Of a stretch of 34,793 bases of DNA, positions 18,753-27,210 are shown in pieces. The stretch's first letter is position 1, and every line of letters begins with the position of its first letter. The position numbers and the translations under genes were made by a program. Source of the DNA: Gammaproteobacteria bacterium (lineage in GTDB: Bacteria > Pseudomonadota > Gammaproteobacteria > Arenicellales > Poriferihabitantaceae); contig WTGA01000007.1 in NCBI GenBank assembly GCA_011523765.1, forward strand, positions 1-34,793, read 5' to 3'. The notes under the pieces are model-generated. The model did not search any database. It was not told where the DNA came from and saw nothing but the letters and a program-made list of their open reading frames with translations.

Positions 18753-20252
18753 TCACCCGGGGGGGGCTCCGTTTTTCTGCAGCCCCGTCCGTTCATTGAA
18801 GGCGTCAATCAATGCATCCAGTTCCTGCATCCGGTTGCGGGCACCCGCCCAGTAGTTCTCATCGTACCATTGGGCCTGAATTTCATCGTAGGTTTTTCCC
18901 TGCTGCTCCACCCAGGTGTAGTACTTGAGGTTGTGGATGCGTTTCCGGTCGTAGTAGCCCAGTTCCTGCACGTGACTGATATCGGCACCAAGAAGATACC
19001 TTTCATAGGCGCCCGCGGCATCCCGGTCCGTGAATTCCCCTTCTTCCTGCCGCATGGCGTCCAGACGGCTCTGGTACATCTCCATGGAGTCCGTGGCGAC
19101 GGTCAGAACGATGTCGGATTTGCCCAGTTCATAATACTTGGCCATTTTGACCGCGGACAGCAAGTTGGCGATGCCTGAAATGGCGATCAGGTTCAGGTTT
19201 TCAATGATTTCCGCGGGTACCCCGTTCCTGGACAGGCAGGCCTGTCCATTGGGCTCGTTGAACAACCGCATGATGGCCATGGTGGCCTGGTCGTCAATGC
19301 CGGTGACCAGATCCGTATTCTTCAGGTTGTGCACCCAGGGAACATGCTTGTCCCCGATGCCCTCGATGCGGTGGGAACCAAAGCCGTTATTCAGCAGGGT
19401 CGGGCACTGCAGGGCCTCGCTGGCGGCTATTTTGCTCCCGGGGAAATGGGTCTTCAGGTAATCGCCGCTGGCGATTGTCCCCGCCGAGCCGGTGGTGACG
19501 GCCAGTCCCCGGAACACATCACCGGACCCCATGGTGTGCCCGAGGACTTCCATCATCGCCCTGCCGGTGACTTCATAGTGCCACATGTAGTTACCGAACT
19601 CGTCGAACTGGTTAAAGATGACCAGGTCCTGCCCGGATTGCCGCAATTCCCGGCATTTGTCGAAAATTTCCTTGACATTGCTTTCGGACCCCGGGGTCTT
19701 TATCGTTTCTCCGGCAATCCGGTTTAACCACTCGAAGCGTTCCTTGCTCATCCCTTCCGGCAGGATCGCGATGGAGTCGCAGGACAGCAGCGTGGAATCA
19801 TAGGCCCCACCGCGGCAATAGTTCCCCGTGGAGGGCCAAACCGCTTTTTGGGTCGTGGGATCAAATCGGCCGGTCACAAGCCGGGGGACCAGGCAGCCAA
19901 AAGCGGCTCCCACCTTGTGCGTCCCCGTGGGAAACCATTTTCCGATCAACGCAATGATGCGGGCCTCGACACCGGTAATCTCCCGGGGGAATTCCATGAA
20001 GTTCACACGGCCGAATTGTCCGCCCCGGGGTTGAGGCCGGTTGTGCCAGTTGATCCGGAACAGATTAACGGGGTCCAGGTCCCACAACCCGGTGCCGGAC
20101 AGTTTGTGCCGGATGGCACCTGGAATCGAGTCCGGGTCGGTCATCTGCCGGAATGTGGGAATGATGACATGGTTTTCCCGGGCCCGGGTGACGGCTCGCT
20201 CGAGCCTGGATTCGTCCTGGACCGTGAGATCGATCAAAGGGTGAGTTTGCAT
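18753..20252 (-). CDS. Long fold-type II PLP enzyme, cysteine-synthase-like, substrate unknown
   Basis: PLP-dependent enzyme of the tryptophan-synthase-beta / cysteine-synthase fold. Probable PLP lysine is Lys113 in PTGTHKVGAAFG. The loop STGNYCRGG (141-149) stands where cysteine synthases have the SSGN-type substrate loop. TTGSAGTIASG (253-263) fits the glycine-rich phosphate cradle, and EGIGDKHVPW (297-306) resembles the GIGAGFVP region. At 499 residues it is much longer than cysteine synthase (about 310) and has extra N- and C-terminal parts, including a Tyr/Trp-rich tail (YYDRKRIHNLKYYTWVEQQ). The ATG at 20252 lacks a Shine-Dalgarno. It is divergent from a rhodanese gene, which hints at sulfur chemistry. 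I do not recognise a characterised member. Confidence 0.85.
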   Translation of the reverse strand: MQTHPLIDLTVQDESRLERAVTRARENHVIIPTFRQMTDPDSIPGAIRHKLSGTGLWDLDPVNLFRINWHNRPQPRGGQFGRVNFMEFPREITGVEARIIALIGKWFPTGTHKVGAAFGCLVPRLVTGRFDPTTQKAVWPSTGNYCRGGAYDSTLLSCDSIAILPEGMSKERFEWLNRIAGETIKTPGSESNVKEIFDKCRELRQSGQDLVIFNQFDEFGNYMWHYEVTGRAMMEVLGHTMGSGDVFRGLAVTTGSAGTIASGDYLKTHFPGSKIAASEALQCPTLLNNGFGSHRIEGIGDKHVPWVHNLKNTDLVTGIDDQATMAIMRLFNEPNGQACLSRNGVPAEIIENLNLIAISGIANLLSAVKMAKYYELGKSDIVLTVATDSMEMYQSRLDAMRQEEGEFTDRDAAGAYERYLLGADISHVQELGYYDRKRIHNLKYYTWVEQQGKTYDEIQAQWYDENYWAGARNRMQELDALIDAFNERTGLQKNGAPPG

Positions 20253-20388
20253 GGAGGGCAGATGGGAGAGTGCGAAAAATTCGAAAATACCCTGTGCCGG
20301 TCGTCGAGTCAATCCGGCCAATCCGGTTTTGTGGAATTTGCCCCGGGATGGGGTATACTCCCTGCCGGAATCATTTGGGTGGCAGGCC
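20253..20388. promoter_or_regulatory. Divergent PLP-enzyme / rhodanese promoter region
   Basis: The 136-bp gap contains a -10-like TATACT at 20354-20359 facing the rhodanese ATG, 29 bp upstream of it; no strong -35 is present. A short direct repeat of AATCCGG, 2 bp apart, occurs near 20311-20326. No promoter for the minus-strand gene was recognised. Confidence 0.35.

Positions 20389-25167: not shown

Positions 25168-27210
<2,043 letters not shown>

What the first reader, a model, noticed from the sequence alone, without database searches (positions are those of the whole stretch)
18753..20252. Uncharacterised 499-residue cysteine-synthase-like PLP enzyme
The PLP-binding core is clear (Lys113, STGNYCRGG, TTGSAGTIASG), but the protein is about 190 residues longer than cysteine synthases and has an unusual aromatic C-terminal tail and an altered substrate loop. 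No characterised family with these features comes to mind. In a sulfur oxidiser it may act on a sulfur-containing amino acid or persulfide.
Basis: partly seen in the sequence, partly recalled or inferred. Interest (0 to 1): 0.55.

Follow-up and report, generated by a model that had tools for sequence, protein, structure and literature searches.

The report
Overlooked PLP enzyme of anaerobic purine breakdown
A gene read as a lone odd cysteine synthase in a sulfur-oxidising bacterium belongs to a large unstudied enzyme family that, in many oxygen-avoiding bacteria, sits among the genes for breaking down uric acid, where it probably turns a late breakdown product into an ordinary amino acid.

Summary
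In detail: window 18753-20252, minus strand, encodes a 499-residue PLP enzyme of the cysteine synthase/CBS clade that passes no curated function model. The sulfur interpretation is not supported. The family is scattered across phyla and tied to the anaerobic reductive uric-acid pathway. In 299 sampled Bacillota genomes it shares 56 genomes with the pathway marker SsnA (69 have each) and pairs with one threonine-synthase-like clade (56 of that clade's 58 genomes). Among SsnA genomes it is complementary to YgeX, the known 2,3-diaminopropionate (DAP) lyase: 45 family only, 9 YgeX only, 11 both, 4 neither. In 132 of 132 family proteins the residue aligned with Asp232 of Fusobacterium Fn1055, key to making L-serine, is Asp (301 here). 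I propose DAP (or albizziin) + H2O -> L-serine + NH3 (or urea), then serine -> pyruvate: an alternative ending to uric-acid breakdown. Association is shown; substrate and reaction are inferred. The window's own genome lacks SsnA, hydantoinase, YgeX and the partner: there the gene looks like an acquired singleton of unknown use.

The parts
18753..20252 (-). The gene: 499-aa PLP enzyme, ATG start at 20252, stop at 18753-18755
   Evidence: start agrees with the MIDLT... start of orthologues
20121..20252 (-). N-terminal extension, residues 1-44, outside the part aligned with cysteine synthases
   Evidence: most listed VIA alignments begin near model residue 45
19914..19916 (-). Lys113, PLP Schiff-base lysine
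   Evidence: aligned with the Lys of Fn1055 and of CysK, CysM and CBS; K in 132/132
19818..19832 (-). Substrate (Asn) loop S141-T142-G143-N144-Y145
   Evidence: S, T, G and N 132/132; Y 115, F 17; CysK has T-S-G-N-T
19608..19610 (-). Gln215, carboxylate-binding Gln of the cysteine synthase clade (role recalled from that clade)
   Evidence: 132/132 and same residue in CysK, CysM, CBS
19476..19490 (-). PLP phosphate loop G255-S-A-G-T259
   Evidence: aligned with GTGGT of CysK
19344..19352 (-). Asp301-Lys302-His303, proposed catalytic triplet (Asp301 = Asp232 of Fn1055)
   Evidence: D and K 132/132, H 125 and M 7; aligned with the mutated position in the D232N structure 5b55
19176..19178 (-). Ser359, partner of the PLP ring nitrogen (equals CysK Ser272; role recalled)
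   Evidence: 132/132; alignment
18756..19031 (-). C-terminal extension, residues 408-499, with the YYTWVEQQG motif
   Evidence: no equivalent in CysK or CysM; W447 132/132, Y444 and E449 125/132; not covered by most PDB matches
20284..20312 (-). Promoter-like site TTGACT-17-TATTTT just upstream of the start
   Evidence: 2 sites found against a shuffle mean of 1.2, so weak; consistent with a gene transcribed alone

Best explanation
The protein is a member of an unnamed family of the cysteine synthase/CBS clade whose usual place is the last stretch of the anaerobic reductive uric-acid (purine) pathway. There, together with a threonine-synthase-like partner, it offers an alternative to the one-step DAP ammonia-lyase YgeX. 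Proposed mechanism: (1) K113-bound PLP forms an external aldimine with 2,3-diaminopropionate (or its 3-carbamoyl form, albizziin); (2) the alpha-proton is removed and the beta-amino (or ureido) group leaves, helped by the invariant Asp301-Lys302 (and His303) at the substrate loop, giving PLP-alpha-aminoacrylate; (3) Asp301 activates water, which adds to C-beta as in Fn1055, giving L-serine; (4) the threonine-synthase-like partner (or, in some genomes, neighbouring Fe-S serine dehydratase or GlyA) passes serine to pyruvate or glycine. SHOWN: clade, fold, invariant residues, clustering with purine genes, pairing with the partner, complementarity to YgeX, Asp301 = Asp232. INFERRED: the substrate, serine as product, the partner's reaction, and any activity in the window's organism, which lacks the pathway markers searched for and where the gene is probably a horizontally acquired singleton.
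For: Complete curated cluster with the gene inside: L055 (Mycoplasmatota zrk6) Xdh - THIS - YgeX - YgeY - YgeW - SsnA - YgfK - HyuA; five of the six named neighbours downstream pass the curated cut-offs of their models and YgeX passes two of its three. L072 and L079 (Desulfobacteraceae) carry partner (only its end in L079) - THIS - YgeY - carbamate kinase - Xdh - SsnA - YgeW, with HyuA in L079. All three Bacillota tiers occur in such clusters. Co-occurrence with SsnA in 299 Bacillota: 56 shared, 13 family only, 13 SsnA only, 217 neither. Pairing with the threonine-synthase-like clade: 56 of its 58 genomes; partner within 5 kb and same strand in 46 of 80 named and 20 of 40 unnamed loci. Complementarity to YgeX among 69 SsnA genomes: 45 family only, 11 both, 9 YgeX only, 4 neither. 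E. coli, which has YgeX, has no such gene in its cluster. Clade: hhalign 98% to CysK, 97% CysM and CBS, 22% YgeX, 0.1% ThrC. Fn1055 (5b53) is the best PDB sequence match, and its D232N mutant 5b55 shows N exactly opposite Asp301. Serine link: SdaB/SdaA directly downstream in L162 and L171, GlyA near in L162, L171, L186 and L193 (L162 copies confirmed).
Against: The window's genome has no SsnA over cut-off (best 176 of 455.5 bits), no hydantoinase over cut-off (88 of 393), no partner and no YgeX among its nine PALP genes, so there the enzyme cannot be serving the known pathway. In L055, L166 and L167, YgeX is present as well; 11 SsnA genomes have both. The two genomes with SdaAB beside the gene (G852, G816) also carry the partner elsewhere, so SdaAB does not replace it. 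13 of 69 family-bearing Bacillota lack SsnA over cut-off, and some copies stand alone (L168-L170, L172-L174). Of 38 named family-bearing genomes tested, 18 reach the SsnA cut-off. An amine is a far poorer leaving group than the thiol of Fn1055. Sampled genomes are related, so the p-values are too small. No substrate was tested.
Confidence: 0.5

Rival explanations
1. It is a plain DAP (or albizziin) lyase: alpha,beta-elimination to pyruvate, a non-orthologous YgeX, and the threonine-synthase-like partner does another job such as acting on the other enantiomer.
For: Complementary with YgeX among SsnA genomes; in the same clusters.
Against: The partner is present almost whenever the family is (56 of 69 genomes, 54 of 56 with SsnA), so one enzyme seems not to suffice. 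The clade is one of beta-replacement rather than dehydratase enzymes, and Asp301 is the serine-forming residue of Fn1055.
Confidence: 0.2
2. It is an amino-acid racemase or acts on another step of ureido removal (for example D- to L-DAP or albizziin), feeding an L-specific partner.
For: The stereochemistry of the pathway is an open question, with an R configuration proposed for the ureido intermediates (PMC12990295, part 1 of 2 read); fold-type II includes racemases (recalled).
Against: YgeX of E. coli accepts both isomers (PMC12507026), yet YgeX and this gene share an operon in L055; the Asp/Lys pair sits where CysK binds the beta substituent (alignment; role recalled).
Confidence: 0.1
3. It acts on cysteine or another sulfur amino acid, as Fn1055 does (cysteine + H2O -> serine + H2S), which could suit a sulfur oxidiser.
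For: Fn1055 is the best PDB sequence match and shares Lys, Gln and the catalytic Asp; a glutaredoxin gene lies next to it in the window; no CysK-length cysteine synthase was recognised among the nine PALP genes of the genome, but a CBS-type one was (read by eye).
Against: Family distribution follows purine catabolism, not sulfur oxidation; only distant relatives in 3 of 23 same-family genomes; the glutaredoxin gene is on the other strand.
Confidence: 0.12
4. It helps mature the selenium-dependent molybdenum hydroxylases of these clusters (for example by handling selenide or selenocysteine).
For: YqeB and YqeC homologues, and in some loci MocA, lie near it in several Bacillota loci (L162, L171, L189-L193).
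Against: E. coli has these genes and no such enzyme in its cluster; complementarity with YgeX points to the catabolic end.
Confidence: 0.06

Closest known systems
Fn1055, cysteine (hydroxyl) lyase of Fusobacterium nucleatum (PDB 5B53, 5B55, 5Z5C)
   Same: Same clade; Lys, Gln, Asn and the serine-forming Asp in the same columns; VIA Z 34.8-35.0.
   Different: 336 residues against 499; about 20% identity; T-S-G-N instead of S-T-G-N; D-E-F instead of D-K-H; acts on cysteine; much shorter outside the core.
CysK/CysM cysteine synthases and cystathionine beta-synthase
   Same: Fold (VIA Z about 33-37), PLP lysine, phosphate loop, Gln, Ser partner of the PLP nitrogen.
   Different: Far below the curated cut-offs; A-G-F (CysK) or other residues at D301-H303; no such tail.
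YgeX (DpaL), 2,3-diaminopropionate ammonia-lyase
   Same: Fold-type II PLP enzyme; found in the same uric-acid clusters.
   Different: Different clade (hhalign 22%); complementary in genomes.
Reductive uric-acid degradation cluster (E. coli ygeW-xdhD; Li et al. 2025, PMC12507026)
   Same: XdhD-type Xdh, YgfK, SsnA, HyuA, YgeW, carbamate kinase and YgeY around family members in L055, L072, L079 (not every gene in every locus).
   Different: The E. coli cluster has YgeX only; here an extra PLP gene or pair. The paper's neighbourhood survey marks PF00291 genes near SsnA as YgeX, so the pair would have been read as YgeX (inference).

Membership tests
PF00291 PALP (fold-type II PLP enzymes) | Profile match over the gathering score | tested here: met
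   46.2 bits, cut-off 35
Cysteine synthase CysK/CysM | Curated equivalog score | tested here: not met
   TIGR01139 78.5 of 350.95; TIGR01136 70.8 of 344.15
Cysteine synthase CysK/CysM | T-S-G-N-T substrate loop and A-G-F (CysK) after GIG | tested here: not met
   S-T-G-N-Y and D-K-H
Cystathionine beta-synthase | Curated equivalog score (TIGR01137) | tested here: not met
   45.4 of 510.25
YgeX / DAP ammonia-lyase | TIGR03528, TIGR01747 or NF006058 match | tested here: not met
   none of them among the 7 families listed at E<=1; hhalign 22% to E. coli YgeX
Cysteine (hydroxyl) lyase (Fn1055-like) | Asp at position 232 | tested here: met
   Asp301 opposite the mutated residue of 5b55; 132/132
Cysteine (hydroxyl) lyase (Fn1055-like) | Cysteine + H2O -> serine + H2S activity | not testable with these tools
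   no assay
Reductive uric-acid gene cluster | SsnA near the gene or in the genome (window's organism) | tested here: not met
   best 176 of 455.5 bits in G000; window neighbours are Mla and fatty-acid genes
Reductive uric-acid gene cluster | Association of the family as a whole | tested here: met
   56 of 69 family-bearing Bacillota genomes have SsnA, 13 of the 230 others do; L055 cluster

The most novel reading that the evidence does not exclude
A new enzyme activity, 2,3-diaminopropionate (or albizziin) -> L-serine by hydrolytic beta-replacement, with a threonine-synthase-like serine lyase as partner, forms a second ending of anaerobic uric-acid breakdown that in Bacillota is more common than the published YgeX ending; orphan copies such as the window's carry the activity into unrelated bacteria.
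Probability: 0.35. Interest if true: 0.78.

Novelty: new variant of a known kind. Interest (0 to 1): 0.62.

Why it matters
The reductive uric-acid pathway, relevant to gut urate and gout, was worked out only in 2025 and its end is written with YgeX (PMC12507026, PMC12990295). If this pair is a second and commoner ending in Bacillota, many urate degraders have been annotated with the wrong terminal enzyme, and genome surveys that look for YgeX miss them. It would also add an unusual beta-replacement (amine or urea out, water in) to the cysteine synthase clade, with one residue, Asp301, that can be tested at once.

Tried and rejected
Selenocysteine: two relatives seemed to hold an internal TGA (L004, L007); reading the ORFs showed that it was the normal stop. 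Simple YgeX replacement: weakened by L055, L166 and L167, which hold both. SdaAB as a replacement for the partner (L162, L171): dropped when one search found the partner elsewhere in those genomes. TrpB and ThrC kinship: hhalign 1.5% and 0.1%. Recent transfer judged by composition: the gene's GC 58.5 and GC3 75.4 resemble the window (58.0 overall; the other genes measured have GC3 58.5-72.7), so composition shows no recent arrival; the tree places it beside Chloroflexota, though the forks nearest to it have support of only 84-85 and the smallest starred set that holds it has 17 rows. Fold search is not specific: the best 50 VIA rows, Z 32.6-37.1, include OASS, CBS, beta-cyanoalanine synthase, O-ureidoserine synthase, SbnA, Fn1055 and Fn1220 alike. 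Literature: searches found no paper in the held open-access library that links this family, or a threonine-synthase-like partner, to uric acid; subscription journals are mostly not held.

Rows dropped: L016 (frameshift, one stop inside) left out of the alignments; L114 (cut by a contig end) left out; L172 left out of the tree only. A2 used 50 of the 80 named loci plus the proteins of 7 relatives and the window's. Only 38 of the 80 named loci's genomes were given. The tree used 35 of the 80 named loci. Neighbour names rest on best phmmer hits, not curated models, except those checked.

Full report
OBSERVATION. The stretch 18753-20252 encodes, on the minus strand, a 499-residue protein from an ATG at 20252. 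Pfam gives PALP, 46.2 bits against a cut-off of 35. Seven NCBIfam models match, none near its cut-off; the best is cysK, 78.5 of 350.95 bits. A promoter-like site lies 32-60 bases before the start (weak). In the window the gene stands alone: the Mla genes and a glutaredoxin gene run on the other strand on one side, a 3-hydroxyacyl-CoA dehydrogenase and a thiolase gene lie on the other side, and aprBA is 8 kb away.

CLADE AND FOLD. With a 58-sequence alignment (A2), hhalign gives CysK 98%, CysM and the genome's own CBS-type protein 97%, but YgeX 22%, TrpB 1.5% and ThrC 0.1%. The AlphaFold2 model has mean pLDDT 93.5 and pTM 0.93. Foldseek and VIA match the middle part, about residues 45-407, to cysteine synthases, CBS and related enzymes with Z up to 37.1. 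The first 44 and last 92 residues lie outside most of these matches. The tail is conserved (W447 in 132 of 132 family proteins, Y444 and E449 in 125), so it probably has a function; its position relative to the active site was not examined.

ACTIVE SITE. In 132 family proteins K113, S141, T142, G143, N144, Q215, D301, K302, S359 and D388 never vary. CysK, CysM and the genome's CBS-type protein have T-S at 141-142, and A, T or E at 301. The best PDB sequence match of the window protein is Fn1055 of Fusobacterium (5b53, E 1.3e-14). Fn1055 turns cysteine and water into serine and H2S, with Asp232 among its key residues (PMC12940168, one passage; PMC9865163, passages; the primary paper was not seen, and its finding that Asp232 adds water to the aminoacrylate is recalled). 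The title of 5b55, given by the fold search, reads 'Fn1055 D232N mutant' in complex with the alpha-aminoacrylate intermediate. In the printed alignments the wild type reads GISDEFIP and the mutant GISNEFIP opposite the window's GIGDKHVP, so Asp301 equals Asp232.

FAMILY AND NEIGHBOURS. Within the flanks, which differ in length, phmmer finds in 80 loci: threonine-synthase-like PLP protein 47, carbamate kinase 27, hydantoinase 27, OTC-type carbamoyltransferase 25, ATC-type 10, YgeY 9, SsnA 8, YgeW 3 and YgeX 1. L055 is a full cluster: Xdh, this gene, YgeX, YgeY, YgeW, SsnA, YgfK, HyuA; its YgeY, YgeW, SsnA, YgfK and HyuA pass curated cut-offs, and its YgeX passes two of three models. These are the genes of the reductive uric-acid pathway of E. 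coli and C. difficile (Li et al. 2025, PMC12507026; parts 1-3 of 7 and passages read), which ends diureidopropionate -> albizziin -> DAP -> pyruvate with YgeX as last enzyme. The E. coli cluster has no gene of this family. In ten of the 80 loci an ATC-type carbamoyltransferase is found, in nine of them beside an OTC-type one, and in none of these ten is YgeY in the flank.

CO-OCCURRENCE. In 299 sampled genomes of the phylum of L076 (Bacillota): the family in 69, SsnA over cut-off in 69, YgeX over cut-off in 43, the threonine-synthase-like clade in 58 (my cut in a gap between 554 and 389 bits). Family and SsnA share 56 genomes; 217 have neither (Fisher p 3e-35). The partner clade shares 56 of its 58 genomes with the family. 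Of the 69 SsnA genomes 45 have the family without YgeX, 11 both, 9 YgeX without the family, 4 neither (p 0.001); 54 have the family and the partner, and of the 11 with neither of these two, 9 have YgeX. The genomes are related, so the p-values overstate; but the pair also lies together on one strand in 46 of 80 named loci and in 20 of 40 unnamed ones, in several phyla.

SERINE. In L162 and L171 the gene is followed directly by both subunits of Fe-S L-serine dehydratase, and GlyA lies near in L162, L171, L186 and L193 (by eye); the L162 copies pass curated cut-offs. Both genomes also hold the threonine-synthase-like partner elsewhere, so this supports serine as a nearby metabolite and not a replacement of the partner.

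MECHANISM. From clade (beta-replacement), the Asp301/Asp232 identity, the DAP-producing neighbours and the complementarity with YgeX I infer: DAP (or albizziin) + H2O -> L-serine + NH3 (or urea), then serine -> pyruvate by the partner. The weak point is chemical: an amine is a poor leaving group. The invariant Lys302 and the near-invariant His303 (125 H, 7 M of 132) could give the proton; this is inference.

THE WINDOW'S ORGANISM. Its genome (3.09 Mb, 177 contigs, 96% complete) has no SsnA over cut-off, no hydantoinase over cut-off, no partner, and none of its nine PALP genes looks like YgeX. In its phylum 2 of 398 sampled genomes match at E<=1e-80, itself included. One search covered 60 genomes, its own included: 8 match at E<=1e-20, itself and seven relatives at 40-47% identity. 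Six of these form a separate subfamily with a changed lysine loop; the seventh is L113, in a pyrimidine-type gene set. The tree puts the window protein among Chloroflexota sequences (17-row set starred at 96; nearest L012), which suggests horizontal transfer; the base composition is the host's. What it does there is open: it could use DAP-like amino acids taken up from outside, or cysteine.

VERDICT. The family is a new variant within the cysteine synthase clade and a likely alternative ending of a recently solved pathway.

Noticed in passing
L113 3062-4441 (minus) and neighbours: A distant family member (39-40% identity) lies in a set with PydA-, PydX- and hydantoinase-like genes and a class III aminotransferase, as for reductive pyrimidine breakdown; no ureidopropionase was recognised in the 14 kb read by eye.
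   Followed up: no
L107-L112: A second subfamily in relatives of the window's organism has an FPMI...AHKVL motif instead of FPTG(T/A/S)HKVG at the PLP lysine and stands near transporter, Lrp-like or oxidoreductase-like genes, not purine genes (by eye).
   Followed up: partly
Anaerolineae loci such as L019 3241-6199: Two different carbamoyltransferases (ATC-like and OTC-like) with carbamate kinase in one operon, without YgeY in the flank: perhaps both ureido groups of diureidopropionate are phosphorolysed.
   Followed up: no
L020 8962-9960 and 11664-12293: A glycosyltransferase-2-like protein and an unknown ~200-aa protein flank the gene between the partner and the hydantoinase; each is found in 31 of 80 loci.
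   Followed up: no
L155 4622-10972: A family member beside what reads by eye as a glycyl-radical enzyme, its activase and a 2-hydroxyacyl-CoA dehydratase-like activator.
   Followed up: no
window 25168-27210 (minus): DsbH-type thioredoxin-domain protein of 680 aa next to lgt and aprBA in this genome.
   Followed up: no
L168-L170: Family members downstream of ATCase-like and pyruvate-kinase-like genes (names from one phmmer hit or by eye), without the partner nearby.
   Followed up: no
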